NCBI GenBank assembly: GCA_041623475.1
Contig: JBFJWU010000013.1
Span: 1 to 19,679, forward strand
Direction of reading: 5' to 3'
Source: JBFJWU01 sp041623475 [NCBI: bacterium]
Lineage (GTDB): Bacteria; J088
DNA length: 19,679 bases
A program made the translations under genes and the position numbers. Positions within the stretch are counted from its first letter, which is position 1. Each line of letters opens with the position of its first letter. The notes under the pieces are model-generated. The model saw only the letters and a list, made by a program, of their open reading frames with translations, made no database searches and was not told the origin of the DNA. Positions 1 through 18,813 of the stretch are shown here, piece after piece.

Positions 1-539
1 CCGGCAACTCCGACGATCAGGATACCGTCGATAATTACCGGCGAACCATAGATGTGAGCTTTGTCGTGATCATCCAGGACCACCTGCCAGTCTACGTCGC
101 CTGTTTTGCGTGACACTGCGTACAGAATTGCCCCGTCACCGGGCTCGATGACCGTCGCCCCGTCACCAACATAGATCCGTTTGTCGTCGACAATCGGCGT
201 TGCATCAATCGGTTTGTCCGAGATCCGGTTCTTCCAAATGACATCGCCGGTATCGAAATCCAACGCGAACAGCCATCCGGTCCAGTCCGTGATATACACG
301 ACGTTGTCGACGACGATGGGGGTGCTGGTGGCACCGACTGTATCGAATGTCCACACCGGCGCCAGACGCCCGACATTGGCCCTTGTAATAATGGATTCGT
401 CCAGGTTGGCACGGCTGTTCTGGTAGTCACGGCCGTACCATGCCCATTCGTGGGGCCCCGGTGCAATGCCCGCACGATCTGTTCCCAGGCACCCGGCACA
501 AAGCACAGGCAATATGGCCCAAACAACAATTGGTCGCAT
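1..539 (-). CDS. PQQ-type beta-propeller lipoprotein, 3' part missing
   Basis: Reading leftward from ATG at 539, the frame stays open to the window edge, so only the first ~179 residues are visible. The N-terminus (MRPIVVWAILPVLCAGC) is a short hydrophobic signal ending in a possible lipobox with Cys17. The mature part has the repeat grammar of PQQ quinoprotein propellers: an early W-x-x-x-G-R-D segment near residue 35, NVGRL near 56, then blades with TPIVVD, VYITDWTG, LFALD and TGDVIW near 73-102, repeated near 113-151. Family members are periplasmic PQQ dehydrogenases (polyvinyl-alcohol-dehydrogenase-like) or non-catalytic BamB-like propellers; the catalytic region is outside the window, so enzyme activity is not proven. 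The gene starts 3 bp after the amidohydrolase stop, with no clear ribosome site, so it is probably the third gene of that operon. Confidence 0.8.
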   Translation of the reverse strand, partial: MRPIVVWAILPVLCAGCLGTDRAGIAPGPHEWAWYGRDYQNSRANLDESIITRANVGRLAPVWTFDTVGATSTPIVVDNVVYITDWTGWLFALDFDTGDVIWKNRISDKPIDATPIVDDKRIYVGDGATVIEPGDGAILYAVSRKTGDVDWQVVLDDHDKAHIYGSPVIIDGILIVGVA

Positions 540-542
540 GAG

Positions 543-2096
543 TCAGCCCGGCATGTTGTTGTGGGCACGAATCAGGTTCAGGACGTCCCGGCGGGTAGTC
601 GGACCGTACACCCGCGGTCGCGCCACCGCCTGGTCGCCGATCGCTTCCTGCAACCACAGTGACTGGAAATCCTCACGGATGACATTGCGCTCCTCTTCGG
701 GATCGATGCCGTACAGGGGTGCCGCATTCAAACCGAAAATTTTTGCCTTGATCGCCGGGGTTAATTCTGGATAGCCGAATTTGTCCTGGAACTCTTCCGA
801 GATCGTCAACGCCCGCATGGCCTCGATCTGGGCCTGCGGCGAGCCATACCAGACGGAATCTGTCCCCCAGACCACACGGTTTTCGCCAATGTACTTGAGC
901 AGCTTGCCAATTACGTGCTGGGCCTGTACAGCATCTTTCATGACCGCCGCCCAGGTGCTGCCCAGTTCGGCGTAGACATTGGCATCGGTTCCTAATCCGG
1001 CATCCTGGACCGACTTGATCAGGCGATTGATACCAAACTGTTCGCCCTGGGGCAGGTCCGGGTCGTATGGGCCCTCATCGTAGTCCGAATCGTACCCGGA
1101 ATGGTAAACGACGATATTGACACCGGGAAAATTCTTTGCCGTCGGGCCAATGTCCCGCGGATCGTTATGTTCCATATCGAACGTCGGGATTGGCAACCCC
1201 TTGTGGACGTTCAGCAGTGGTGTCCCTGAATCCTGGATGAACTGCAGGTACCGGTCGCCAAGCCCCGAATCGAGGAAATACCCTTGCCCGTTCGGCCCCC
1301 ACGCAGTGTACGATTTCCACCCGGCAACGGTGTGGAACTCCTCCTGGAGCGCCACCATCGCATCAAACTCTTCCTGGGGGTCCGGCGACAGGTTGGGGAG
1401 CACCATCGCGTGGTTCAAGACACGCTGTCCGCCGCCCGCCAGGCAGTTGATCAGGTCCCGGGACTCGGCGATCTCGTCGTTCTTCAGCGGGTTACTGTCG
1501 CCTGTGGCCGGGATTCCGGTCAGGACCGCCAGCGTCGTATCGCTGGCGACAAACATTTCATAGATGTAGGTGTCCCGGGACAGCAGCTTCAGTCCGTCAA
1601 CTGATCCGTCGTTGTACGGTGGCAGGGCTTCGCCGCGGTCCAGGTAACCATCATATTTGACCTGGTTGAGCAGCAACAGGAACGCATTATAGGCTGTATT
1701 TTTCATCCATTCGGCACCGGCCTCGACATTGAAATGATGGGTCTGGACATCAAAAATAAACTCATCGCCCTTGAGCACCTCCCTGGCGGCAGATTCGTCA
1801 CACAGCATTTGCTTGTTGACGTTGAATCCACCTTTGGAATCACCACAGCCACTGACCATGTTGATGGCAAACAGCGCAGCGGCCATGCCCCTGGCACTTT
1901 CCAGGTATTCACGACGGGTCATTCCCAGCCGTCCTGCATAGCTATCGGCGATCCGGTGCACCAGGCGGTCGGCAGCGGCCTCGGCCGGTTTCTGCCGGGG
2001 AAAGTACTCGCCGTTGCTCACCGGGCCGAAATAGATCGGCGACTCGGGTGTTGCCTCGTGAACCGACTTACGTTTCTTGAAGTGGATAAATGCCAT
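543..2096 (-). CDS. Amidohydrolase 2 family metal-dependent hydrolase, Tat-type leader
   Basis: A 517-residue protein of the Amidohydro_2 (TIM-barrel, metal-dependent hydrolase) family. Visible landmarks are DVQTHH (116-121, in place of the usual HxH after strand 1), NVHKG (His298), YHSG (His332), WGTD (Asp412) and the family's closing KIFGLNAAPLYG (452-463). Residues 59-84 are a twin-arginine-like signal, TRREYLE followed by a hydrophobic stretch ending VSGC, so the enzyme is probably exported folded and perhaps lipidated. A 58-residue extension precedes the Tat motif. I chose the ATG at 2096 because GGAG lies 9 nt upstream, inside the stop of the preceding gene; ATG at 1922 would put the Tat motif at the extreme N-terminus. 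The gap to the monooxygenase homologue is 8 bp and to the propeller gene 3 bp, indicating one operon. The substrate is unknown. Confidence 0.85.
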   Translation of the reverse strand: MAFIHFKKRKSVHEATPESPIYFGPVSNGEYFPRQKPAEAAADRLVHRIADSYAGRLGMTRREYLESARGMAAALFAINMVSGCGDSKGGFNVNKQMLCDESAAREVLKGDEFIFDVQTHHFNVEAGAEWMKNTAYNAFLLLLNQVKYDGYLDRGEALPPYNDGSVDGLKLLSRDTYIYEMFVASDTTLAVLTGIPATGDSNPLKNDEIAESRDLINCLAGGGQRVLNHAMVLPNLSPDPQEEFDAMVALQEEFHTVAGWKSYTAWGPNGQGYFLDSGLGDRYLQFIQDSGTPLLNVHKGLPIPTFDMEHNDPRDIGPTAKNFPGVNIVVYHSGYDSDYDEGPYDPDLPQGEQFGINRLIKSVQDAGLGTDANVYAELGSTWAAVMKDAVQAQHVIGKLLKYIGENRVVWGTDSVWYGSPQAQIEAMRALTISEEFQDKFGYPELTPAIKAKIFGLNAAPLYGIDPEEERNVIREDFQSLWLQEAIGDQAVARPRVYGPTTRRDVLNLIRAHNNMPG

Positions 2097-2104
2097 ATCC
2101 GCAA

Positions 2105-3247
2105 CTACTCCAGGATAAAACTGTTAAAGAAGTTGCCGCCCAGGTATGGCGAATAGGCGCCAAAGATGTTGCACATTTCGTCTTCGGCTTCGTCCCCCAG
2201 CTCAACTGTGCGGTCTTCGTGGTTGGTATACGTACACGAGTAGCGGACAATATCGCCCCGTTCGATCAACAGGGGCGGATTGAAATGAATAAATTCCGGC
2301 TCGAACCAGCTGTCCGTCCAGTACACGAGTTCCTCGGTTCCATCCTGGCGCTCGATCACGACCTCGGATTCAAGCATCCGGCGATGCGCGTGGGCGGTCA
2401 GCAGATGGATTTTCATTTCGTTCAACGGCTTGCCGTTTTCGTCTTCCCATTCGTCCATGTCGTACTGGGGAAGTTCAACGTAATAGGTCTTGGTCTCGTC
2501 AACGGCGAATGGCTCGATAGACAATGGAAACCCGATCCAGGTAATGAACCCAATCTCTTCCTGGATCGCCTCGGGGTCCTTGACTTCCATCGCGTTGACC
2601 CAGACCTCCATCGTGATTGGCTTGCCGGTCAGGTTCAGCGAATGACTGTTCAGGATCAACTGCGTCCCGCCGGATATCCGCGCGGCATAATTGCCCAGCG
2701 CTTCATAGTCGGGCGTTTCCAGTGCCCCTGGCGCCTGCAGGCCAGCCAGCCACGTCAGGGTGCCAAAATCAATGTCAGCCTCGGTCAGGCCCGCTTCGAC
2801 GAACTCTGGGACACCCGTGACGCCATCGGCCGGATACCCGGCAAAACAGGGATAGTAGACATCGTCGGGCAAATCCACATCCGAAGAGTACATCAGGAAA
2901 TGGTGCGACCCCGGCCGCATCCGCGCCGCGAACTGGCGCACCAGGACATCCTGGTCCCTGGGCACCTGCACAGTCTGGCAGATTTCGATCTCTGTTTCGG
3001 TCTGGACGTAGGGACCAAACTTCACCTGCCAGCCTTCACCGGTGGCCGGCACAGGTAACGGACCTTCAAAATTCTCCGGGCAATAGTAAAGCTCGTTTGG
3101 GTCATCCAGCCGTTCGGCACGCTCCTCGCACGTCTCGTTTTTGTTTGCCTTGGATGTCGTTTCACCCTCCAGGCAACCCTGGGCAACAACGATCATCAGC
3201 GGCGCAACCAGCGCGGCCGGTAGTCTTTTCAAAACATTCGCTTCCAT
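2105..3247 (-). CDS. Copper type II (PHM/DBM-fold) monooxygenase-like secreted protein
   Basis: Resembles the copper type II, ascorbate-dependent monooxygenase fold of peptidylglycine alpha-hydroxylating monooxygenase (PHM) and dopamine beta-monooxygenase. All six expected copper ligands can be placed (380-residue numbering): GSHHF gives His115/His116 and NSH gives His202 for the CuH site; AHAHRRM gives His286/His288 and DEMCN gives Met358 for the CuM site. In PHM the last motif is also E-M-C-N. The N-terminus is a signal ending VVAQGC, possibly a lipoprotein. Start choice: GGAGGG (3260-3255) ends 7 nt before ATG 3247 and 4 nt before ATG 3250, whereas ATG 3262 would overlap it; 3247 is preferred. 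It is the first gene of a leftward operon with the amidohydrolase and propeller. Hydroxylation next to N, O or S with O2 and a reductant is family knowledge; the substrate is unknown. Confidence 0.8.
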   Translation of the reverse strand: MEANVLKRLPAALVAPLMIVVAQGCLEGETTSKANKNETCEERAERLDDPNELYYCPENFEGPLPVPATGEGWQVKFGPYVQTETEIEICQTVQVPRDQDVLVRQFAARMRPGSHHFLMYSSDVDLPDDVYYPCFAGYPADGVTGVPEFVEAGLTEADIDFGTLTWLAGLQAPGALETPDYEALGNYAARISGGTQLILNSHSLNLTGKPITMEVWVNAMEVKDPEAIQEEIGFITWIGFPLSIEPFAVDETKTYYVELPQYDMDEWEDENGKPLNEMKIHLLTAHAHRRMLESEVVIERQDGTEELVYWTDSWFEPEFIHFNPPLLIERGDIVRYSCTYTNHEDRTVELGDEAEDEMCNIFGAYSPYLGGNFFNSFILE

Positions 3248-3272
3248 CATCCATCCCTCCATTCAGGCGTGT

Positions 3273-4058: not shown

Positions 4059-4603
4059 ACCGCACCGCACTGCCTGTGTCGACAGCTGTGGCCATCGGCC
4101 TGACATTGGCGCTGGTCGGCTGCGGCGAAACCAGCACCGGGACGGTGCAACTGACTGACCAGACATTGTGGCAACCGGTCTCGGCAGATGCAGATCCATT
4201 TGTTGAACTCGTCGACCCGGACCAACGAGTTGATTGCACCCGGGACGCCTGGCAGATCGAAGAGGTCGGCGGCACGGGCCTGGAGGTCCGCACCGAGAAC
4301 TGCAACTTTGCGACGTTTTCGCAGCCGCTGGCAGCTGGCATCCGCCCCGGCGACCAGATCACGATCCGCGTCCTGACAACCCCGTTTTTCATCACTGCCA
4401 ATCCCCTGCCAGCGTATGTCGCGCTGTCCCTGAACGGCACAGTCATCTGGCAACGGGACCTGCAGGTCCCTTCCGAAGCCGAGTTGTTGGACGAAACGTT
4501 TGAATCAACGGTCAAGGCCCCAGCCGGCAACCCGATTCTCTATCACGTCAACAATCACGGCAACAATTCCTGGACGGTTTACGAGATCTCGCGGCGGCGA
4601 TAG
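4055..4603 (+). CDS. Small lipoprotein of unknown function with NHGNNSW motif
   Basis: A 182-residue protein starting at GTG 4055, which overlaps the tetR stop by 4 nt (GTGA), implying coupled translation. The N-terminus is a textbook lipoprotein signal with lipobox LVGC (Cys23). The mature protein has Cys pairs (CTRDAW and ENCNF), a SQPLAAGIRPGD segment, an even spread of beta-type residues, and ends with YHVNNHGNNSW before WTVYEISRRR. This looks like a small beta-sandwich. I recognise no named domain or catalytic motif. Co-transcription with the regulator of a secreted-enzyme operon suggests an extracytoplasmic partner or ligand binder for that pathway, which is inference. Confidence 0.75.
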   Translation: MNRTALPVSTAVAIGLTLALVGCGETSTGTVQLTDQTLWQPVSADADPFVELVDPDQRVDCTRDAWQIEEVGGTGLEVRTENCNFATFSQPLAAGIRPGDQITIRVLTTPFFITANPLPAYVALSLNGTVIWQRDLQVPSEAELLDETFESTVKAPAGNPILYHVNNHGNNSWTVYEISRRR

Positions 4604-4718
4604 GAAACCGCGGACCTGTGGATTACCCACGCAGTGTTGTCAGTCTGGCACGACGAGAGCCTGATCGAGACCCTGGCTCGACCGGTAATCCAATGTCACT
4701 GGAATCGAATTCCTGTCA

Positions 4719-4768
4719 CGCACTGTCCCCGGGCCGGAATCAATCACGGCTTCAGAGTGCACAGTGCG
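4719..4768. repeat. Inverted repeat in the intergenic region
   Basis: CGCACTGT at 4719-4726 is matched perfectly by ACAGTGCG at 4761-4768, with a 34-nt interior that can itself fold (GGCCG with CGGCT). There is no T-tract, so it does not look like an intrinsic terminator. It may be the 3' end structure of the tetR-lipoprotein transcript or a protein-binding site. Confidence 0.35.
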
Positions 4769-4891
4769 GCTGGTCTTTATTGGCGCGCTCGGCGATTCGA
4801 TCGTGCTCCCAAAACAGCTGCCGCGGCGTATTGGCACCGACAGGTACAGAAGTCCGGACCCGTTGGTACCCCCACAACCGTGTTAGTAAAC

Positions 4892-4913
4892 AGAGGGATA
4901 TGGTGCACCCTCT
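4892..4913. promoter_or_regulatory. Hairpin or operator abutting the TonB receptor promoter
   Basis: AGAGGG (4892-4897) pairs with CCCTCT (4908-4913) across a 10-nt loop that shares the palindrome GGTGCACC (4902-4909). The right arm ends at the first base of the -35-like TTGATT, so a bound regulator would contact RNA polymerase. It could also be a weak terminator for readthrough from the left. Confidence 0.35.
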
Positions 4914-4942
4914 TGATTTCGGAAACGATCAACCACTAGAAT
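4913..4942 (+). promoter_or_regulatory. Probable sigma70-type promoter of the TonB receptor gene
   Basis: TTGATT (4913-4918) and TAGAAT (4937-4942) are separated by 18 bp. Transcription would begin near 4949-4950, about 52 nt before the receptor start and almost exactly at the ATG of a 20-codon ORF. Confidence 0.45.
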
Positions 4943-4949
4943 AGGCAGA

Positions 4950-5012
4950 ATGTTTTTGATACACGAGCAGGCGCAGGTGTGGCAGACCGGACTGGCCGGA
5001 AATGATTTCTAG
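4950..5012 (+). CDS. Possible 20-residue leader peptide overlapping the TonB receptor start
   Basis: ATG 4950 opens MFLIHEQAQVWQTGLAGNDF and stops at TAG 5010-5012, 8 nt inside the receptor gene in another frame. The ATG lies 7 nt after the TAGAAT -10 hexamer, so a leaderless start is possible, and termination over the receptor start would permit coupling. There is no Shine-Dalgarno sequence and no amino-acid run typical of attenuators, so chance is a serious alternative. Confidence 0.25.
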   Translation: MFLIHEQAQVWQTGLAGNDF

Positions 5013-7182
5013 GGTACGCGGCATTATTGTTCCTGCGGTCGCTATCTTGGGTATGGTGCCGGCCATCGGTTCCGCGGCAGAAGTGACCCAGTCGGTTGAT
5101 GCGACGACACAGTCTGTTGCGGCAGCAACGTCCGGGACTCTGGTGACGGACTCACTGGCTCCGGCGTCACGGGCAGGCAACAACAACACCGATGACTTCT
5201 CTGATTTCAGTGACCTCAGCCTGGACGCTTTGCTGAACATAGAGGTCGATGTCGGGTCGGCTTTTTCAGAGTCGATTGACAACATTCCGGCAATTGTCCA
5301 GGTCTTTACTGCGTCAGACATTCGTCGGCTGGGAATTCGTGATTTGCGTGAATTGCTGCTGCATTTCGCGGGCTTTTTTGAAACTGCCGCGATAACTACA
5401 CCTTTCCTGACACGTGGTGTCGACATCCGCGGTGGCGCAACGTCTAGCCGGGTTATGATCCTGGTCGATGGGCACCCCTTGCTGGACGCAATAGATGAAA
5501 TTTACGAGCCATACGGAATTCCAATCGACGCGATCCAGCAGGCAGAGTTCCTGCGCGGGCCTGCGGCAATCCTGTACGGGTCGTCAGCGATGGGCGGTGT
5601 ATTGAACCTGCGACTGCGCAAGCCGGATGACACATCCGGATCCGTCTTCATTTCTGGAGATCCCCTGCGCATCGCGGGCGAGGCCGCGGGCCAGGCGGAA
5701 TTCGCCAGCGACAAGTCCGACTGGCAGGTCAGCGCCGACGTGCAGGTCAGGCAAACCGAGGACAGGCAGATCTTTTTTGACAAGGACGACTTTGGCCAGT
5801 CAGGCCAGTTTTCAGCACAGGCCCGTTATGTCAGTTCGATACTGACATTCCACCACGGGAATACCCGCCTGCGCCTGCGCCAGCATGAAGTTGTCAGCGG
5901 CTGGCAGGGGATTTCGTATGTCTTTGCCACCGAAGCGGACGACGGCGACCTGACACTGCTGGGAGCCGATTTTCGACACGTCCAACCGGCAGGCGATCGC
6001 TGGGAGATCACCGTCAAGGGTGGATTCGACGGCCGGGACCGCAACATGGACCTGGGAATTTTCCCGATTACGGAATTGCCGCCGACACCCGTTTTCAGCG
6101 GGCGCACGCTGGATGAACACCGAACAACAATCAAGCAGCGCGATTATGTGTCAGTAGGGTCTATCCAGGGTGCCGCATCCTGGGACTCCTGGCGATTGAC
6201 GGTTGGCGCCGATTACCGTCATCTTTGGATGGCAGACCAGCGATTTGAATTTAACGATGACGGAGCCGATCACCCGTTCGGATCGCCACCGGGTGCCGAC
6301 ATTCAGATGCACGACGTCAATGCATTCGCCCAGGCAGACATCTATATGCACGATGATGTCGCATTATTGTCGGGCATACGCCTGAACACATTTATCCCGC
6401 GGGCAAAAAACATTGAGGCGACCTTGCCGGATCCGGATGACCAGAGGCCCGCACCGACCGTGTCCCCGATGGCACGTGGTGCGCTGGTCTGGCACGCAGT
6501 GGACTCAACAACTTTCAAGCTGCTGTATGGTCGATCTTTCCGACTGCCAACCGGCCTGGAAATGTTTAATTCGGCTGCCGGCTTTCTGGTGCCCAATCCC
6601 AAACTGGGGCCGGGACTGCAGGACACGCTGGAGGTCGTCGCCAGCTCCAACGTGCTGGAGCAATTGTACTTTCAGATTGACCTATTCCAGTTCTGGGTCC
6701 ACGACCAGATCGAGTTTATCGTCCAGCCGGATGTTCTGCAGGGCGGCTTTGACAACCTGGGTGGCACCAGCCTGGTCCGTGGCGTCGAAAGCGAATTCCG
6801 CTGGATACCGGCAGACTGGCTGGACACACAGCTGTCTTTCACTTTCCAGGAGGGATTTGAAACGGATAAACGTTACAACCGGCGTATTCCCAGGGTCATC
6901 GGCAAGCTCTGGTCATCCTTTCGCCCACTGCAAAACGAAACACTGGTAATTACGCCAAAATACCGATACCGGGGCCGATCCGGCACCCGCGGTTCGGACA
7001 GTATTGTCGATGCCGTCATTACTTCCCGGCCAGTGGACTGGCTGCAGCTGTCGGTGTCTGCGATCAATATTGCCAACGAACCGGAAACGATGAACATTGC
7101 AGTTATTCCCGGAGTCGGTGACCGCTACGGCGAATTGATAGAAAGCCGCGCGTTGCGCATTGGTGTCCGGGCGGATTTCTGA
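5002..7182 (+). CDS. TonB-dependent outer-membrane receptor
   Basis: A 726-residue outer-membrane transporter. A signal peptide occupies about residues 1-26, with cleavage likely near IGSAA. A linker follows with LSLDALLNIEVDVGSAFSESIDNIPA (72-97), the N-terminal pattern of receptors that begin 'LSLEDLLNIEV'. The plug domain (about 95-205) shows VFTASDIRRLGIRDLRELL, TRGVDIRGG, VMILVDGHPLLD, FLRGPAAILYGSSAMGG and VLNLRLRKP. The rest alternates amphipathic strands as a 22-stranded barrel and ends in Phe (RIGVRADF), the outer-membrane assembly signal. Energy would come from TonB-ExbBD, not encoded here. The substrate cannot be read from sequence; the family carries siderophores, vitamin B12, sugars and other large nutrients. 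The start at 5002 has only a weak GGAA nearby. The P450 gene begins 76 bp downstream with its own promoter-like element. Confidence 0.92.
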   Translation: MISRVRGIIVPAVAILGMVPAIGSAAEVTQSVDATTQSVAAATSGTLVTDSLAPASRAGNNNTDDFSDFSDLSLDALLNIEVDVGSAFSESIDNIPAIVQVFTASDIRRLGIRDLRELLLHFAGFFETAAITTPFLTRGVDIRGGATSSRVMILVDGHPLLDAIDEIYEPYGIPIDAIQQAEFLRGPAAILYGSSAMGGVLNLRLRKPDDTSGSVFISGDPLRIAGEAAGQAEFASDKSDWQVSADVQVRQTEDRQIFFDKDDFGQSGQFSAQARYVSSILTFHHGNTRLRLRQHEVVSGWQGISYVFATEADDGDLTLLGADFRHVQPAGDRWEITVKGGFDGRDRNMDLGIFPITELPPTPVFSGRTLDEHRTTIKQRDYVSVGSIQGAASWDSWRLTVGADYRHLWMADQRFEFNDDGADHPFGSPPGADIQMHDVNAFAQADIYMHDDVALLSGIRLNTFIPRAKNIEATLPDPDDQRPAPTVSPMARGALVWHAVDSTTFKLLYGRSFRLPTGLEMFNSAAGFLVPNPKLGPGLQDTLEVVASSNVLEQLYFQIDLFQFWVHDQIEFIVQPDVLQGGFDNLGGTSLVRGVESEFRWIPADWLDTQLSFTFQEGFETDKRYNRRIPRVIGKLWSSFRPLQNETLVITPKYRYRGRSGTRGSDSIVDAVITSRPVDWLQLSVSAINIANEPETMNIAVIPGVGDRYGELIESRALRIGVRADF

Positions 7183-7243
7183 CCAGAAACACCGGCCCCC
7201 ATGTCCGGCACAGACTGATCGGCTGCCGACAGGCCCTGGTTTT

Positions 7244-7252
7244 TGCTACACT
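7244..7252 (+). promoter_or_regulatory. Extended -10 element of the P450 gene, likely leaderless
   Basis: TGC-TACACT forms an extended -10 (TGn plus hexamer 7247-7252). The GTG start at 7259 follows after 6 nt, so the transcript would begin at or next to the start codon. No Shine-Dalgarno sequence precedes this GTG. Confidence 0.45.
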
Positions 7253-7258
7253 TGCGCT

Positions 7259-8620
7259 GTGACCCTGACAACTTTAGCGAATCCATTTAGACCGCCACGG
7301 GTTTCCGGTGGCCTGCCCGTTGTCGGACACGCGATAGCGTTCGGCAAAAACCCGGACCGGTTTATCGCCCGGGCACAGGCCGAGTACGGTAACACGTTCG
7401 ACGTAGCCCTGCCTGGCGGACGACGGATCTTCCTGACCAACCCGCACGACTTTCCGCGATTCTATGCCGAGACACGGATGACATTCCTGGCGCTGGCAAC
7501 CGAGCTGGGTGGACGAATGGCGGGGTACGACTGGCAGAACGCCTGTCTGGACGACATGCACGTGATGACCCATGGCATCTGGGACTGGCTGAAAGGCCCG
7601 CCCCTCCAGTTCACCAGCGGTGCGATGCAGGACCGGTTCCTGGCGCTTTTCCGTGAGTCATCGGACGAAAGCGGCTCCAGGAACCTGCTGGCGTGGTGCG
7701 AGCGCCTGCTGTTGGATGCCAGTTCCCGCGCACTTTTTGGCTTCGAGTTCCCGGTGGAACAGATGACAGCCGCATACCAGCGGATTGATCGCCAGGTTCC
7801 ACTGCTGGCCGCAGGAATGCCGGCAGGCCTGATGCCCGGCTGTCGTGCCGCGCAGGACCAATTGGCGAACGCTGTGGCGGACTGGCAACCCGACTGCAGC
7901 CCCCTGATGGAGTTTCGGCATAACTACTTTGAAAAGAGACAGATCCCCAGGTCTGAAAATGGCTATATGGATGCGTCCCTCCTGTGGGCATCCTTGTCCA
8001 ACACAACCGTCACGGTGTTCTGGCTGCTGTGGTACCTGGCCCGGGATCCCCGTGCGATCGAACGGGTGCGAGCGGAACTGGACACGGTCCGTGCCGCGAG
8101 CAGGGTCGGCGACCCGTTTGCCCCGGAACAGCTGAAGCAGATGCGCCTGCTGGATGCCGCCGTCAATGAGACACTGCGACTGGCATCTGCGCCAATGTCG
8201 ATCCGGGTCTGTGACGAAGATTTCCAACTGGAACTGGACGATGGTCGAACCCTGGACCTTCGCACCGGTAACAACGTCTGTCTCTACATTCGTGGCCTGC
8301 ATCTGGATCCGGAGATTCACGATGATCCGAATCAGTTCCGGATCGACCGATTCCTGGCCGAAGCCGGCAATCCACGGCGATTTTACAAGGACGGTCGTCG
8401 CGTCAAGTTCGCACTGTTGCCATTCGGGTCGGGCGAAAGCAAATGCCCTGGTCGGGCATTTGCCCGCAACGAAGCCAAGGTCATGGCTGCCCACATCCTG
8501 GAGCGATTTGATCTGACGCTGGATCGCCCGGATCACCCCGGATTTGATTGGAACCGGGTCGGGCTGGGCGTCCTGGCACCGTCACGTCCCGTAAATGTTC
8601 AGCTGGAGCCACGGACGTGA
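7259..8620 (+). CDS. Cytochrome P450 resembling CYP7/CYP8 sterol and eicosanoid enzymes
   Basis: A 453-residue P450 from GTG 7259. The heme loop is PFGSGESKCPGR with Cys396, the K-helix ExxR is Glu304-Thr-Leu-Arg307, and LHLDPEIHDDP and F-R-I-D-R-F (360-365) match the meander region. The I-helix reads WASLSNTTVTVFW (243-255): the usual acidic residue before Thr is Asn, as in animal CYP7A1 and prostacyclin synthase CYP8A1. From my memory of human CYP7A1, the I-helix, ETLRLAS, HLDPEIH, FGSG-CPGR and GLGVL segments also match closely. There is no N-terminal membrane anchor, and it begins at the proline-rich NPFRPPRVSGGLPVVGH. Likely substrates are sterol-like or oxylipin-like lipids, which is inference. 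No ferredoxin or reductase gene is adjacent. The stop overlaps the next GTG start (GTGA). Confidence 0.9.
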   Translation: MTLTTLANPFRPPRVSGGLPVVGHAIAFGKNPDRFIARAQAEYGNTFDVALPGGRRIFLTNPHDFPRFYAETRMTFLALATELGGRMAGYDWQNACLDDMHVMTHGIWDWLKGPPLQFTSGAMQDRFLALFRESSDESGSRNLLAWCERLLLDASSRALFGFEFPVEQMTAAYQRIDRQVPLLAAGMPAGLMPGCRAAQDQLANAVADWQPDCSPLMEFRHNYFEKRQIPRSENGYMDASLLWASLSNTTVTVFWLLWYLARDPRAIERVRAELDTVRAASRVGDPFAPEQLKQMRLLDAAVNETLRLASAPMSIRVCDEDFQLELDDGRTLDLRTGNNVCLYIRGLHLDPEIHDDPNQFRIDRFLAEAGNPRRFYKDGRRVKFALLPFGSGESKCPGRAFARNEAKVMAAHILERFDLTLDRPDHPGFDWNRVGLGVLAPSRPVNVQLEPRT

Positions 8621-9276
8621 GCCGCGCGCAGCGGATCCATATCGCAGTCGCGTCAGTGATGTTGCTGGTAATGACAGTCGAACTGGCGATCTTGATCTAC
8701 AACACACAATGGCTGCACGTTTTTCTGGTCCTGAGCATAATGGCCATCACCATCCTGCCGTTGATGCCAGGTCGGCGGTTCCAGGTCCAGATCCCATCCG
8801 AATTCCAGTTGATGACAATCCTGTTTGTATTTGCCAGCCTGTTCCTGGGTGAAATTCGCAGTTATTACGAACGATTCTGGTGGTGGGATATCGTCCTGCA
8901 TACGACCAGTGGCCTGTTGCTCGGGATCGTTGGCTTTCTATTGGTCTATGTCCTGAACGAAAACCGGCGTGTCAACCTGACGATGCGGCCGCATTTCGTG
9001 GCGTTCTTCGCCTTTGTCTTTGCGGTATCCGTTGGGGCTCTGTGGGAAATTTTCGAGTTCACGATGGACCAGTTATTGGGTATGAACATGCAAAAGGCCA
9101 TGTTTAATGATCCATCCGGACTGACCGACACGATGTGGGACCTGATCGTCGACACGGTCGGCGCGGCAATCATCAGCCTGTTTGGCTGGTGGTATATGCG
9201 ACGCAACGAGCCGTCATTCATCGATCAGTGGGTCCGCAAATTTATTGATGCCAACCCCAGGATGTTCCGACGATAA
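8617..9276 (+). CDS. YjdF/DUF2238-like integral membrane protein
   Basis: A 219-residue protein starting at GTG 8617 within the P450 stop (4-nt GTGA overlap), so the two are probably translationally coupled. About six membrane segments are visible: near residues 7-28, 32-50, 62-79, 90-112, 124-144 and 175-196. The polar residues inside or next to them, in DIVLHTTSG, GALWEIFEFTMDQLLG and TMWDLIVDTVGA, match the YjdF (DUF2238) family pattern of an Asp/His helix, an E-x-x-E/F helix and a W-D-x-x-x-D helix. The family's function is not established. Coupling to a soluble P450 suggests it helps with a lipid or membrane substrate, which is inference only. Confidence 0.75.
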   Translation: MSRAQRIHIAVASVMLLVMTVELAILIYNTQWLHVFLVLSIMAITILPLMPGRRFQVQIPSEFQLMTILFVFASLFLGEIRSYYERFWWWDIVLHTTSGLLLGIVGFLLVYVLNENRRVNLTMRPHFVAFFAFVFAVSVGALWEIFEFTMDQLLGMNMQKAMFNDPSGLTDTMWDLIVDTVGAAIISLFGWWYMRRNEPSFIDQWVRKFIDANPRMFRR

Positions 9277-9341
9277 GTTGGACCTTCAGGTACATTGAAT
9301 CGTCGCGCTACAAGCACATAGACCGACCACCCGGAGCCAAC

Positions 9342-10517
9342 ATGAAACTTGCGATCCTGTCCCGACAACCACGTTCATACAGCACAAAACGCCTGAAAGA
9401 AGCTGCCCTGGAGCGGGGTCACAAGGTTCGGGTTCTGGATACCATGCGATTTGCACTCGACCTTGCCCACGGCGAACCGGACCTGGTCTACAAGTCCAAG
9501 CCATTGCCAATGGTTGATGCCATCATCCCGCGGATCGGCGCGTCGATCACCTACTTTGGCACCGCGGTTGTGCGTCAGTTCGAACAGCTGGATGTCTATA
9601 CGCCCAACTCTGCGACCGGCATTGCCAATTCGCGGGACAAGTTGCGGGCACTGCAGATCCTCAGCCGCCACGATGTCGGCATTCCAGAGACGACGTTTGT
9701 CCGCGACCGTCAGGACGTCCTGCCGGCAATCCGGCGAATTGGCGGTGCGCCGGTCATTATCAAGATTCTTGAAGGCACCCAGGGAATCGGTGTCATGCTG
9801 ACCGAATCTGAAAAAACGGCCGAAGCGGTTATTGAAACATTGCAAAGCGCCAAACAGAACGTCCTGATTCAGCAGTTCGTTGCCGAAAGCAAGGGCACGG
9901 ACCTGCGCGCATTTGTGGTCGGCGACCGCGTTGTTGCCGCGATGCGCCGAACAGCCAAGGGCGACGAGTTTCGCAGCAACGTCCACCGCGGCGGTTCTGC
10001 AGAGTCTGTCGAGTTACCTGAGGAATACCAACGCTCTGCCGTTTATGCAGCGCAGATCATGGGCCTCCGGGTTGCCGGCGTCGACATGCTGGAATCCAAC
10101 GACGGCCCGCTGGTTATGGAAGTAAACTCGTCCCCGGGTCTGCAGGGGATCGAACAATCTACGGGAATTGATGTCGCCGGCGAAATCATCACCTATATCG
10201 AAGAACACGTGTCGTTCCCGGAGCTGGACGTTCGCCAGCGCCTGACGGTCAGTCGCGGGTATGGTGTTGCCGAGTTGCTGGTGCCCGATGGCAGCGGGCT
10301 GGTTGGCAAGACCATCGCCGAATCTGGATTGCGTGATGCGGACATCCTTGTATTGACGTTGACATCGGACGGAATGGTCATTCCAAATCCACGCCAGACG
10401 CGGGTTTTGAAAGGCGGCAGCAGGCTGTTGTGCTTTGGCAAACTGTCCAGTATGCGCAGCCTGGTACCCCAGAGAAAGCGTCGACGGCGAAAATCCGGAG
10501 GCGCTGGAGACAAGTGA
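9342..10517 (+). CDS. rimK: RimK-type ATP-grasp glutamate ligase fused to an RCK_C domain
   Basis: A 391-residue protein. Residues 1-290 are a RimK-type ATP-grasp ligase: PRIGASITYFG (63-73), PNSATGIANSRDKL (88-101), IIKILEGTQGIGVML (139-153), DLRAFVVGDRVVAAM (187-201), and Mg/ATP ligands Asp248, Glu260 and Asn262 in VDMLE and MEVNSSPG. RimK adds glutamates to a protein C-terminus, classically ribosomal protein S6. Residues about 306-367 form an extra domain (VAELLVPDGSGLVGKTIAESGLR through RLLCFGKL) that matches RCK_C/TrkA-C ligand-binding domains of potassium transport and other regulators. A basic tail (KRRRRK) ends the protein. Standard RimK is ~300 residues. GGAG lies 5-6 nt before ATG 9342. 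The stop overlaps the peptidase GTG start (GTGA). The symbol refers to the ligase domain; the target protein is unproven. Confidence 0.85.
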   Translation: MKLAILSRQPRSYSTKRLKEAALERGHKVRVLDTMRFALDLAHGEPDLVYKSKPLPMVDAIIPRIGASITYFGTAVVRQFEQLDVYTPNSATGIANSRDKLRALQILSRHDVGIPETTFVRDRQDVLPAIRRIGGAPVIIKILEGTQGIGVMLTESEKTAEAVIETLQSAKQNVLIQQFVAESKGTDLRAFVVGDRVVAAMRRTAKGDEFRSNVHRGGSAESVELPEEYQRSAVYAAQIMGLRVAGVDMLESNDGPLVMEVNSSPGLQGIEQSTGIDVAGEIITYIEEHVSFPELDVRQRLTVSRGYGVAELLVPDGSGLVGKTIAESGLRDADILVLTLTSDGMVIPNPRQTRVLKGGSRLLCFGKLSSMRSLVPQRKRRRRKSGGAGDK

Positions 10518-14125: not shown

Positions 14126-15010
14126 TTACACCGATTCCGAATCGTCTGGTTCGTTGCCGGCCATCCCTTTGCCAGCTGTCAATGCGACCGGAACCGGCCC
14201 TGTCGCCGACCCGGCATACAGACTGACATGCGGGAATGGGATTTCAATCCCCTCGGCATCAAACCGCGCCTTGATCTGTTCGTACATCTGATTGCGCATC
14301 TCCAGAAAGTTATCCTTCGCAGCCCAGACATTGAACTGGATGTCTATTGACGATGATCCATAGCCCAACAAGATTACGACCGGTACGGGCCGTTCAAGGC
14401 ACAGTGGGTTGCCAGACGCCACATCCATCAGGATGTCCCGGACTCGGGCAAGATCTTCTTTGTACGCAACCCCGATTTTCAGGTCCGCACGACGGATTGG
14501 GAAACGCGTAATATTGCTGATCTGGGTCTTGATCAGCGTCTCATTCGGAATTCGGACAAACAGGTTGTCATAGGTGCGCAGTTTCACGCTGAGCAGGTCA
14601 ATCGAAAGCACTTCCCCACGCGTACCGCCAACATCGATGACCTCGCCAACGGTAAACGGACGTTCACCCAGCAGGAACAAACCACTGATCAGGTTTGATG
14701 CCGCAGTTTGTGACGCGAAACCCAATGCAACCGTCAGGATTCCTGCTGCGCCCAGGACAACCCCAACCTCGATTCCGGCATTGTCCAATGCAGCAAGCAC
14801 GGCAATCACAGCCAGGCCGTAAAACACAAATTTCTGTGCAACAAGCGCTGCCTGCTCGTTGTCCCTGGCAACCAGGATCCTGGCTGCCACCGCAGCCAGC
14901 CCCCTGGCGATCGCCAGGCCGACGACCAGGATTATCAATGATCCAATCAGGCTGACCACCGTTCCATCAGCCAGGATCCTGCGAAGATCGTCGGGCAGCA
15001 GTTCGGTCAC
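14126..15010 (-). CDS. MscS-family mechanosensitive ion channel
   Basis: A 294-residue small MscS-type channel. Predicted membrane helices lie at about 18-40, 60-78 and 82-115; the third is the pore helix (GAAGILTVALGFASQTAASNLISGLFLL). The beta domain follows (RPFTVGEVIDVGGTRGEVLSIDLLSVKLRTYDNLFVRIPNE), then the alpha/beta domain and the family's IEIPFPHVSLY near 262-272. The C-terminal tail is acidic (NEPDDSESV). These channels open on membrane tension to release solutes after osmotic downshock. GTG 15010 directly abuts the DUF432 stop (TAG then GTG, no gap), so it depends on translation of that gene. Confidence 0.9.
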   Translation of the reverse strand: MTELLPDDLRRILADGTVVSLIGSLIILVVGLAIARGLAAVAARILVARDNEQAALVAQKFVFYGLAVIAVLAALDNAGIEVGVVLGAAGILTVALGFASQTAASNLISGLFLLGERPFTVGEVIDVGGTRGEVLSIDLLSVKLRTYDNLFVRIPNETLIKTQISNITRFPIRRADLKIGVAYKEDLARVRDILMDVASGNPLCLERPVPVVILLGYGSSSIDIQFNVWAAKDNFLEMRNQMYEQIKARFDAEGIEIPFPHVSLYAGSATGPVPVALTAGKGMAGNEPDDSESV

Positions 15011-15820
15011 CTAGATCAACCTTGCCGACAGATCTGTAAACGCATCAAAGGTCCGCAAAATCAGGTTGCGGTCCATGGCTTGGCGGGGTGTCCCGACCTG
15101 TGACCAACCCCGGTCGCTGGCATCTGCCACAGGTTTCAGTTCAATTTCCGTCGGGCGGTCATCGCGAACGGTTGCACGCAAACCCCGGGTCCAGTGACGG
15201 TTCTCTGAATCCCGGTACAATTCCAGCAGCATGATCGGTATTTTCAGATGGTCAACCGTAAATGGTTTAGTGCTCAGATTGTCAATTGTAATCGGTGTAA
15301 TGGCACGATTGGCGCGTGGTTCGAACTCCTCGATTCCTGTTCGCGCTTTGGTTCGGGCAACGTAGCAAAGCTCTCCGGACCGAGTGTTTTCACCGAACCA
15401 GGTGTCCGATGGGCGAACTGTCGGCAACTGCAACAGCTCTGGTCCCGCGTCAGGATGCAACGCCATCCATAGCGCTGTCCCAACGTACAAATCGATCGCC
15501 TGACCGGGTGGTATCGACAATGGGATTTCCGGTTCAACGACATAAGATCGATCGCCCAGCACTGGCCGCATGGACAACTCGGGCGGCGACTCGGCAAATC
15601 CAAACCTGGCGGTTTCGAACAATTCCAGGTCATCCGGCCACTCTGTCGCCGGTTCGAACTGATCAAGATCAACGTCGCGATCCAGTCTCCAGGCAACCGT
15701 CCAGTCCCTGGGTTGACGACGGACATATACCGAAATCGCGCCAATCCGGAACCCGGCGTGTCTGGCTGACGCCAGCCGCACGATGGGGAACGGATCAAAT
15801 TTCAAAGCCTGTTCAGTCAC
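15011..15820 (-). CDS. DUF432 family protein
   Basis: A 269-residue protein from GTG 15820. The core agrees with DUF432 as I remember it: SIPPGQAIDLYVGTALWM (near 134-151), then LPTVRPSDTWFGENTRSGELCYVAR (about 163-187), then ITPITIDNLSTKPFTVDHLKIPIMLLELY (about 207-235). It is soluble and rich in beta-strand patterns; no catalytic motif is evident. DUF432 genes are often beside mscS genes, and this one abuts mscS with no gap and has another mscS upstream, suggesting a channel accessory or regulatory role (inference). A longer form from TTG 15868 would begin upstream of its own -10 hexamer and is unlikely. AGGA lies 12 nt before the chosen start. Confidence 0.7.
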   Translation of the reverse strand: MTEQALKFDPFPIVRLASARHAGFRIGAISVYVRRQPRDWTVAWRLDRDVDLDQFEPATEWPDDLELFETARFGFAESPPELSMRPVLGDRSYVVEPEIPLSIPPGQAIDLYVGTALWMALHPDAGPELLQLPTVRPSDTWFGENTRSGELCYVARTKARTGIEEFEPRANRAITPITIDNLSTKPFTVDHLKIPIMLLELYRDSENRHWTRGLRATVRDDRPTEIELKPVADASDRGWSQVGTPRQAMDRNLILRTFDAFTDLSARLI

Positions 15821-15857
15821 GGTTTGTAAAGATCCTGTCGATTGAGCCCACCCATAG

Positions 15858-15863
15858 AGTGTA
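15858..15863 (-). promoter_or_regulatory. -10-like hexamer for the DUF432-mscS operon
   Basis: TACACT on the minus strand (15863 to 15858), in the context GTACACTCTA shared with the rimB leader promoter. Transcription would start near 15851, giving a ~31-nt leader to GTG 15820. It lies in the 65-bp gap after the upstream mscS. Confidence 0.4.
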
Positions 15864-15885
15864 CTCAAACCCGTTGATCTAAACG

Positions 15886-16809
15886 CTACTTCGTGGTCTC
15901 CGGCATCGCATTGCGAAAATTGATGTCCCGTTGCGGGAACGGAATCTCCACGCCATTGGCAACGAATGCGGCCATTAGCGACTCGCGTACATCGGCAGCA
16001 ATAAAATTTCGACGCCAGGGTTCGCGCGTCCAGATGTTCAAGACGTAGTCCAAACTGGAATCACCGAAATTCTTCAGCAGGACGCTCGGCTCCGGGTTAG
16101 CCTCAACACCCTCTGTCCCGGCAGCCACCATGATTGCTAATTCAACGACCAGTGCGCGATCCGACTTGTAATGAACGCCGAACTCGACCGAAATTCGTGA
16201 TGTCGGATCTGACAGCGTCCAGTTGACCAGATTGTTCTCCAGCAGCACAGAATTAGGAATCATGACCTCGATGTTGTCCCAGTTCACCAACCTGGTCGCC
16301 CGCCAACCGATCTCCTGGACCAGTCCGAACTCACCGTTGACTTCAATAATGTCACCGACACGCACTGGCTGCTCGAAAAGCATCACCAACCCGCTGACAG
16401 AATTATTGATAAGGTTCTGCAGCCCGAAACCGATGCCAACGCCAAGCGCGGCCAGGACTGCAGCAATCGAACTGAATCCAACGCCGCTGACATCGAGGAT
16501 AAAGACAATCGCAACCAGCCACATGACGACGTTGACCAGTTGACCAAACGCGTGGGCACTTTTCTCGTCCTTGATCCGTTTTCGAGCCATGGCAACAGAT
16601 GCCGCGTGAACGCGATGGCGAATTGTCAAGAATGCGACAACCGCCAGCACAATCAAGAACACACGGATCAAAGTAATATCCTGGTTCCCGACCGAGAACA
16701 GACGAACATCCAGAACGGTGCGCACCTTCAGCAGCCACTCTGTTACCAATTCCATGTGTAACCTTGCGCTTTCGATACCTGTCCCGATTCGAAACAGGCG
16801 TTCATGCAT
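15886..16809 (-). CDS. MscS-family mechanosensitive ion channel (second copy)
   Basis: A 307-residue channel with membrane helices near 46-63, 90-110 and 113-146. The pore region IAAVLAALGVGIGFGLQNLINNSVSGLVMLFEQPVRVGDIIEVNG (about 114-158) closely follows the KefA/YbdG-type MscS consensus. The beta domain has NWDNIEVMIPNS, and the C-terminus has NGVEIPFPQRDINFR. It is more canonical than the neighbouring copy and clearly a paralogue, not a recent duplicate. ATG 16809 follows TGC-TAAGTT by 6 nt (leaderless). ATG 16755 has AAGG 6 nt upstream and would remove 18 unusual N-terminal residues; both are credible. It is separated from the DUF432 gene by 65 bp with its own promoter-like hexamer. Confidence 0.9.
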   Translation of the reverse strand: MHERLFRIGTGIESARLHMELVTEWLLKVRTVLDVRLFSVGNQDITLIRVFLIVLAVVAFLTIRHRVHAASVAMARKRIKDEKSAHAFGQLVNVVMWLVAIVFILDVSGVGFSSIAAVLAALGVGIGFGLQNLINNSVSGLVMLFEQPVRVGDIIEVNGEFGLVQEIGWRATRLVNWDNIEVMIPNSVLLENNLVNWTLSDPTSRISVEFGVHYKSDRALVVELAIMVAAGTEGVEANPEPSVLLKNFGDSSLDYVLNIWTREPWRRNFIAADVRESLMAAFVANGVEIPFPQRDINFRNAMPETTK

Positions 16810-18375: not shown

Positions 18376-18813
18376 GTGACTAATCCAGAAACGATTATCC
18401 TGCCGGCCATCGCTATGGCTATTTATACGCTGGTTGCGCTGGGCGCGTTGGGGCTTGCCCGTTTGCGCGCAGTCAACCGACACCAGGTGGATTTTCGCTA
18501 CTACCGCTTGTACAACTCGGGTACACAGCCGGATCAGTTGCAATTGCTGAACAGGCATGTCCAAAACTTGTTTGAGGTCCCACCGTTGTTTTATGCAGTT
18601 GTCATCCTGACGTACGCGTCTGAACAGGTGACGCTGTCGTCAGTGATTCTGGCATGGGGCTTTGTGGTCCTGCGGTTTGCACACGCCTGGGTACACCTGT
18701 CGACCAATTTCGTCCCGCGCCGATTCAAAATATTTGCTGCATCGATCCTGGTCCTGGCTGGGCAATGGATCCTGCTACTGGTGGCGCTGTTGAGACAAAT
18801 AACCGTCCAGTAG
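18376..18813 (+). CDS. MAPEG family membrane protein
   Basis: A 145-residue membrane protein of the MAPEG superfamily (membrane-associated proteins in eicosanoid and glutathione metabolism). Four hydrophobic helices lie near 5-28, 67-83, 86-107 and 117-139. Between the first two is NRHVQNLFEVPPLFYA (59-74), the family hallmark N-x-x-E/Q-N-x-F-E-x-x-P. Eukaryotic members use glutathione or lipid substrates, but most bacterial ones have no proven activity. It starts at GTG 18376 with a promoter hexamer immediately upstream. It ends 9 bp from the convergent Wzi-like gene stop, with no visible terminator between them. Confidence 0.85.
   Translation: MTNPETIILPAIAMAIYTLVALGALGLARLRAVNRHQVDFRYYRLYNSGTQPDQLQLLNRHVQNLFEVPPLFYAVVILTYASEQVTLSSVILAWGFVVLRFAHAWVHLSTNFVPRRFKIFAASILVLAGQWILLLVALLRQITVQ

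What the first reader, a model, noticed from the sequence alone, without database searches (positions are those of the whole stretch)
7259..8620. Bacterial P450 resembling animal CYP7/CYP8
The I-helix WASLSNTT has Asn where most P450s have an acid, and its surroundings, ExxR, HLDPEIH and heme loop resemble cholesterol 7-alpha-hydroxylase and prostacyclin synthase. Loss of the acid in those families goes with altered oxygen chemistry or isomerase activity. The protein lacks a membrane anchor. It could be a sterol or oxylipin enzyme, or a hint about the bacterial relatives of the CYP7 clan.
Basis: partly seen in the sequence, partly recalled or inferred. Interest (0 to 1): 0.65.

Follow-up and report, generated by a model that had tools for sequence, protein, structure and literature searches.

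The report
Bacterial cousin of animal cholesterol-hydroxylase P450s
The gene encodes a bacterial cytochrome P450 from a small, apparently undescribed bacterial branch of the animal enzyme group that makes bile acids and prostacyclin; related genes lie in bacteria that carry sterol-making genes, so it may show where that animal group comes from and how some bacteria oxidise sterols.

Summary
The 453-aa P450 at 7259-8620 is real, and its likeness to animal CYP7/CYP8 is specific: the six best PDB sequence matches are CYP8B1, CYP7A1 and CYP8A1 chains (E 3e-49 to 7e-35), the next is a CYP51 at 1e-22.

I found 13 bacterial carrier genomes. Window, kin and four animal CYP7/8 proteins form one clade (100/100) against 25 other P450s, sharing an I-helix Asn, an FW pair, a C-x-G-R heme loop and an insert before it.

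Correction: the Asn stands in the conserved Thr column; the acid column holds Ser. CYP7A1 and CYP8B1 hydroxylate with the same Asn, so isomerase chemistry is not implied.

Eleven carriers (probably Nannocystales) have squalene-epoxidase and oxidosqualene-cyclase matches, as nearly their whole order does. Nannosterols from that suborder bear a C-7 ketone of unassigned enzymology, so this P450 is a candidate. The carriers in the order of the window's nearest kin, G001 and G019, show no cyclase match and no sound epoxidase match; the window enzyme's substrate is open.

The direction of any animal-bacteria transfer is unresolved (AU p 0.31, 0.125). The listed search results showed no paper on bacterial clan-7 P450s.

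The parts
7259..8620 (+). cytochrome P450 of the CYP7/CYP8 (clan 7) group, 453 aa, GTG start, TGA stop
7985..8008 (+). I-helix WASLSNTT (residues 243-250); Asn248 in the conserved Thr column, Ser247 in the acid column
   Evidence: alignment of 43 P450s
8168..8179 (+). ExxR (E304-R307) followed by a CYP7/8-like LASAP stretch in place of the usual PP
8300..8320 (+). HLDPEIH (348-354), as in CYP7A1 HLDPEIY
8369..8419 (+). block before the heme loop (residues 371-387): 15-18 residues in window, kin and animal CYP7/8, 5-10 in 25 other P450s
8423..8455 (+). heme loop FGSGESKCPGR, Cys396 at 8444-8446
8537..8581 (+). C-terminal P-x-x-D-x-x-R-x-G-x-G motif shared with CYP7A1/8A1/8B1
8617..9276 (+). 219-aa membrane protein whose GTG start overlaps the P450 stop by GTGA; probably co-translated; weak DUF2238 (E 0.0044, under the cut-off)
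   Evidence: link to the P450 inferred
5002..7182 (+). TonB-dependent receptor, same strand, 76 nt upstream; substrate-uptake role only inferred

Best explanation
A soluble bacterial P450 monooxygenase of the clan that holds animal CYP7, CYP8 and CYP39. Shown: clan placement (against CYP7A1, CYP8A1 and CYP8B1), a complete heme-thiolate P450 frame, shared clan-specific motifs. Inferred: it binds a bulky, largely hydrophobic lipid, most likely a sterol or steroid-like triterpenoid, takes electrons from a ferredoxin/reductase pair encoded elsewhere, and hydroxylates by ordinary oxygen activation with the Asn-Thr pair (Asn248-Thr249) that CYP7A1 and CYP8B1 also have. In the probable Nannocystales the related enzyme is a candidate for sterol oxidation, for example the C-7 oxygenation of nannosterols. 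The window enzyme is a divergent branch that may act on a sterol taken from outside.
For: PDB sequence ranking (kin L001 and L015 rank the same enzymes first, 1.5e-43 and 2.6e-73 to CYP8B1). Tree: window + 13 bacterial + 4 animal rows one clade at 100/100 against 25 others. Diagnostic columns 18 of 18 vs 0 of 25 (Asn248, Phe254, Arg399). Human CYP7A1 is 34-39% identical to 12 of the 13 bacterial kin (27% to F_L001, 28% to the window), against 34% to human CYP8A1, 36% to CYP8B1 and 32% to zebrafish CYP8A1. Model: Foldseek ranks 1-15 are CYP7A1, 8B1 and 8A1. Thr249 kept, unlike CYP8A1. All 11 carriers in the order of G226 have squalene epoxidase and oxidosqualene cyclase matches. Nannosterols carry a C-7 ketone of unassigned enzymology (PMC10152446). 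CYP7A1 makes 7-oxocholesterol from 7-dehydrocholesterol (PMC8653896, passage).
Against: The sterol link is indirect. Squalene epoxidase (26 of 29 at E<=1.9e-24) and oxidosqualene cyclase (26 of 29 at E<=7.9e-134) are near-universal in that order, so co-occurrence discriminates little; no cyclase match passes the family's cut-off, and both families also ring in control genomes (PF08491 in E. coli and Caulobacter, TIGR03463 in B. subtilis), so neither match proves a sterol enzyme. G001 (nearest kin, 39%) has no epoxidase match and no cyclase match at E<=1e-20; G019 has no such cyclase match and a marginal epoxidase match, 5.7e-4. Neighbours named by Pfam are not sterol genes. No redox partner in the window. 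The window has Leu246-Ser247 where all 13 kin have Gln/His-Ala/Gly. CYP8A1 in the same clan is not a hydroxylase. VIA-align Z for CYP7A1 (31.9) exceeds CYP51 (30.7) and BM3 (30.4) only slightly.
Confidence: 0.55

Rival explanations
1. A clan-7 hydroxylase of a non-sterol lipid (fatty acid, terpenoid, hopanoid or a secondary metabolite). The clan kept its frame but changed substrate, as CYP8A1 did.
For: G001 and G019, the two carriers in the order that holds the window's nearest kin, show no oxidosqualene cyclase match at E<=1e-20 and no sound squalene epoxidase match; divergent I-helix Leu-Ser; no sterol gene among the Pfam matches of the 19.7-kb window.
Against: CYP7A1, CYP8B1 and the nearest outside group CYP51 all act on sterols (established knowledge); the kin in 11 of 13 carrier genomes sit with matches to sterol genes.
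Confidence: 0.28
2. A prostacyclin-synthase-like isomerase that rearranges lipid peroxides without O2 or NADPH.
For: Same clan as CYP8A1; Asn248 and loss of the acid are shared with CYP8A1; no redox partner gene in the window.
Against: Thr249 and the C-P-G-R heme loop match CYP7A1/8B1, not human CYP8A1 (Met and C-L-G-R); zebrafish CYP8A1 has Ala after the Asn but C-P-G-R. CYP8A1 groups with CYP8B1 inside the animal clade at 100/99, away from bacteria.
Confidence: 0.1
3. A recent transfer from an animal, or eukaryotic contamination of the contig.
For: The AU test does not reject bacteria nested beside CYP7A1 within the animals (p 0.125).
Against: Gene without interruption in a bacterial neighbourhood (TonB receptor, RimK, type II/IV secretion ATPase), GC3 like its neighbours, 13 bacterial kin proteins down to 34% identical to each other, animal rows a clade at 100/99.
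Confidence: 0.05
4. An ordinary bacterial or CYP51-type P450 with a convergent Asn.
For: CYP51 is the nearest group outside the clan.
Against: Tree, insert, FW, C-x-G-R and C-terminal motif all agree; identity to two CYP51 references only 24%.
Confidence: 0.02

Closest known systems
CYP7A1 (human cholesterol 7-alpha-hydroxylase, PDB 3sn5/3dax)
   Same: clan, Asn-Thr in the I helix, FW, insert before the heme loop, CPGR, C-terminal RxGLG; top fold match
   Different: 28% identity to the window; window soluble; Leu246-Ser247 instead of Gln-Ala; substrate unknown
CYP8B1 (human sterol 12-alpha-hydroxylase, PDB 7lyx)
   Same: best PDB sequence hit, 3.3e-49; same motifs
   Different: 29% identity; animal rows form their own clade
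CYP8A1 (prostacyclin synthase, PDB 2iag, 3b98)
   Same: clan, Asn, insert, FW
   Different: no Thr after the Asn (Met in human, Ala in zebrafish); human C-L-G-R loop; isomerase
bacterial CYP51 and CYP51-ferredoxin fusions (Methylococcus capsulatus type)
   Same: nearest group outside the clan; found in the same phylum as the kin
   Different: H-T-S I helix, no insert, 24% identity
Nannosterol pathway of Nannocystis (PMC10152446)
   Same: cholestanol core with a C-7 ketone; P450s proposed but not assigned (passages, section 6 part 1; part 2 not opened)
   Different: no gene was tied to C-7 in what I read; our link is inference

Membership tests
P450 superfamily | ExxR, Cys heme loop, P450 profile | tested here: met
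   Pfam 1.6e-44; motifs
CYP clan 7 (CYP7/CYP8/CYP39) | clusters with CYP7 and CYP8 rather than other P450s | tested here: met
   100/100 clade, 18 rows vs 25; no CYP39 or CYP7B1 row was available, and the 25 outgroup rows hold no eukaryotic P450
CYP clan 7 (CYP7/CYP8/CYP39) | Asn I helix, FW, insert, C-x-G-R (features picked here from the alignment, not from a published definition) | tested here: met
   18 of 18 vs 0 of 25 for Asn, Phe and Arg; block 15-18 vs 5-10 residues
family CYP7 or CYP8 | over about 40% identity to members (nomenclature rule, recalled) | tested here: not met
   26-29% to four members
CYP7A1-type enzyme | sterol 7-alpha-hydroxylation | not testable with these tools
   needs an assay
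prostacyclin synthase CYP8A1 | no Thr after the I-helix Asn (Met or Ala in the two rows at hand) | tested here: not met
   window has Asn-Thr
CYP51 | groups with CYP51, GHHT I helix (recalled) | tested here: not met
animal microsomal P450 | N-terminal membrane anchor | tested here: not met
   window 0.17 hydropathy; kin L015 2.1, L047 1.7, L017 1.5, L016 1.4

The most novel reading that the evidence does not exclude
Clan-7 P450s arose in sterol-oxidising bacteria of the myxobacterial kind, and animals acquired the ancestor of their bile-acid and prostacyclin enzymes from them. In Nannocystis-like bacteria the family member is a true bacterial sterol 7-oxygenase that makes the C-7 ketone of nannosterols. 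The window enzyme is an early, soluble branch kept outside sterol makers.
Probability: 0.25. Interest if true: 0.88.

Novelty: new variant of a known kind. Interest (0 to 1): 0.66.

Why it matters
[quoted passage not shown] A deep bacterial branch of clan 7 gives an outgroup for the origin of bile-acid and prostacyclin enzymes. It also gives soluble models of membrane enzymes, and candidates for bacterial sterol oxidations whose enzymes are unknown: C-7 in nannosterols (PMC10152446, passages) and C-25 in Enhygromyxa salina (PMC10202945, passages).

Tried and rejected
Own-genome search: no genome is held for the window, so its sterol genes and redox partners could not be checked. Viral contigs: no match to the window protein's octapeptides. 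Plasmids: 255 records; the 15 listed are 23-30% identical.

The genome-contig scan used two short patterns and reported 80 stretches, which may be a cap; 10 were relatives. It did not return the Nannocystales-type kin found later, so it is not exhaustive.

Genome samples with no family member: class of G002, 369 genomes (3 hits <=1e-35: L036 and L037 are 96% and 67% to M. capsulatus CYP51, L038 29%); phylum of G005, 199; phylum of G004, 398 (one hit, G989, reads as a CYP51-ferredoxin fusion by its GHHT motif; the blast in that script returned nothing because it ran on the wrong ORF); phylum of G003, 198. For some searches the tool warns that an empty answer without a known positive shows nothing. 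Searches scored at most 4 candidates a genome, 37 and 82 at most 8, and samples overlap, so misses are possible. E-values are inflated for genomes whose proteins were in the profile.

Rows dropped before the tree: 16 of 23 distinct CYP51-type loci were used, and all 13 family kin, 7 other loci, 2 CYP51 references and 4 animal proteins. The tree tool warned of one long outgroup row and of odd letter make-up in three animal rows.

Gene-neighbour conservation: beyond the six close kin loci L058-L063, the only shared non-P450 genes found were a SirB-like small membrane protein (L039, L043) and large proteins alike in L040 and L041. My ORF picker missed the P450s of L040 and L041.

Hydropathy: the output for L050-L053 is unusable (wrong anchor point), so they are not counted.

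Direction of transfer: bacterial monophyly not rejected (p 0.31), though only 6% of 200 bootstrap trees had it. Without window and L001 the bacteria are a weak clade (61/64), sister to animals. Bacteria beside CYP7A1 not rejected (p 0.125). Left open.

Organism names of G handles are not given. 'Myxococcota' and 'Nannocystales' are my inference from genome size (9.0-13.2 Mb), locus GC 0.665-0.719, sterol-gene matches and the myxobacterial literature (N. exedens GC 72%, search listing only). L001 is titled Pseudomonadota.

Papers: in the rows listed by searches (lists capped at 8-20 rows) I saw no paper on bacterial clan-7 P450s; PMC9148083 has no word beginning CYP7 or CYP8 in its main text. 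The CYP8B1 structure paper is not held.

Full report
What is there. The ORF at 7259-8620 (+) is a complete P450 of 453 aa (Pfam 1.6e-44). A GTG start at 7259 fits the alignment with kin. The longer TTG ORF from 7160 overlaps the TonB receptor and adds no hydrophobic segment.

The likeness to CYP7/CYP8 is specific. Against 177,635 distinct PDB sequences the six best are CYP8B1, CYP7A1 (two), human CYP8A1 (two) and zebrafish CYP8A1, E 3.3e-49 to 7.4e-35. The seventh is CYP51 at 1.1e-22 (the M. capsulatus protein). A model built from the window and nine loci proteins (mean pLDDT 78.6) gives Foldseek ranks 1-15 all CYP7A1/8B1/8A1 and rank 16 CYP51. VIA-align puts CYP7A1 first at Z 31.9, but CYP51 at 30.7 and BM3 at 30.4 are close, so the sequence, not the fold, carries the claim.

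Kin. A profile of window plus three human proteins, scanned as two short patterns over 84,980 species genomes, gave 10 relatives among 80 pattern matches. One is close: L001, 39% identity, WASQGNT; the other nine are 24-34% over the matched part and are CYP51-type or other P450s. In 377 genomes of the phylum of L001's genome, five carry the family (E <= 2.9e-111; L001's own protein was in the profile) and the next hit is 7.3e-42; all 17 further hits are CYP51-type. In the order of G226, 11 of 29 genomes carry it (the 12th hit, 3.9e-48, is CYP51-like). In the order shared by G001 and G019, 2 of 63. In all, 13 carrier genomes. Kin L015 matches CYP8B1 at 2.6e-73 and CYP7A1 at 5e-71; L001 ranks the same enzymes first.

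Phylogeny. In a 43-row tree (LG+C20, IQ-TREE) window, 13 kin and 4 animal proteins are one clade at 100/100 against 25 bacterial CYP51-type and other P450s. The four animal rows are a clade at 100/99. Window and L001 lie outside a fork that joins the other 12 kin with the animals, but at 81/84 only; bacteria were one side of a branch in 6% of 200 bootstrap trees. An AU test does not reject bacterial monophyly (p 0.31). Without those two long rows the bacteria are a weak clade, 61/64; and bacteria beside CYP7A1 is not rejected (p 0.125). So the relation is firm and its direction open. No CYP39, CYP7B1, invertebrate, fungal or protist clan-7 protein was at hand.

Diagnostic features. In an alignment of the same 43 proteins Asn248, Phe254 and Arg399 are in 18 of 18 clade rows and 0 of 25 others; Trp243 in 18 of 18 and 2 of 25; the block before the heme loop has 15-18 residues against 5-10. 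Human CYP7A1 is as similar to most bacterial kin (34-39% in 12 of 13) as to human CYP8A1 (34%) and CYP8B1 (36%).

The I helix corrected. The printed I-helix block shows no gap in any row, so Asn248 takes the place of the conserved Thr, and Ser247 that of the acid or His. In the 13 kin that column is Ala (12) or Gly (1); in the animals Ala or Gly. Thr249 follows in all 14 bacterial rows and in CYP7A1 and CYP8B1, but is Met in human and Ala in zebrafish CYP8A1. CYP7A1 and CYP8B1 are hydroxylases (established knowledge), so the Asn alone does not point to isomerase chemistry.

Function. Matches to squalene epoxidase (PF08491) and oxidosqualene cyclase (TIGR03463) are found in all 11 carriers of G226's order: epoxidase E <= 1.9e-24, cyclase E <= 4.6e-155. 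Three cautions. First, nearly all genomes of that order have them, carriers or not (epoxidase 26 of 29 at E <= 1.9e-24, cyclase 26 of 29 at E <= 7.9e-134). Second, no cyclase match reaches the curated cut-off of 851 bits. Third, in the 14 control genomes PF08491 rings in E. coli and Caulobacter and TIGR03463 in B. subtilis, so related enzymes match too. This places the family among probable sterol makers and does not tie it to sterols. G001 has no epoxidase match and no cyclase match at E <= 1e-20; G019 no such cyclase match and a marginal epoxidase match, 5.7e-4. The window's own genome is not held. In print, nannosterols of Nannocystis carry a C-7 ketone, with P450s proposed and none assigned in what I read (PMC10152446; passages, section 6 part 1). 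E. salina makes 25-hydroxycholesterol and other oxysterols, and its C-25 hydroxylase is unidentified (PMC10202945, passages). CYP7A1 turns 7-dehydrocholesterol into 7-oxocholesterol (PMC8653896, passage). A CYP7-type P450 in probable Nannocystales is therefore a natural candidate. This is inference.

Surroundings. The P450 stop overlaps a GTG start of a 219-aa membrane protein (GTGA, 8617-8620), and a TonB receptor ends 76 nt upstream. A promoter scan of 4600-9600 found one weak site, at 4913-4942, upstream of the receptor, no more than shuffles give. An operon receptor-P450-membrane protein is plausible and unproven. No ferredoxin or reductase is among the Pfam matches of the 20 window ORFs scanned. 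The RimK-AspA-RimB block resembles one in G005 (67% for RimK); this does not fix the organism.

Novelty. The rows listed by searches of an open-access library showed no paper on bacterial clan-7 P450s. The lists are capped, the library lacks most subscription journals, and a P450 naming list may already hold these sequences under family numbers.

Noticed in passing
L015, L016, L017, L047 (N-termini): Four kin carry an N-terminal hydrophobic segment followed by RR.GEPPL, like animal microsomal P450s, while window, L001, L018, L048, L049 and L054 do not; L050-L053 were not measured.
   Followed up: partly
L019, L020, L070: CYP51-ferredoxin fusions appear as next-best hits in the phylum of G001 and in one genome of the phylum of G004.
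   Followed up: no
L043:10743-11108 and L039:3933-4370: Homologous SirB-like small membrane proteins (42%) near the family P450 in two genomes; Pfam matches under the cut-off.
   Followed up: partly
window 3-3262 (-): A PQQ-dehydrogenase-like protein, an amidohydrolase and a copper type II monooxygenase-like lipoprotein lie in a row on the minus strand.
   Followed up: no
window 14126-16809 (-): Two MscS-type channels flank a 285-aa protein with no Pfam match.
   Followed up: no
window 18376-18810 (+): A MAPEG family protein (eicosanoid/glutathione type), 10 kb from the P450.
   Followed up: no
L010 and L038: A bacterial P450 pair with VWAGHETT and 29-30% identity to M. capsulatus CYP51, sister to the CYP51 rows in the tree.
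   Followed up: no
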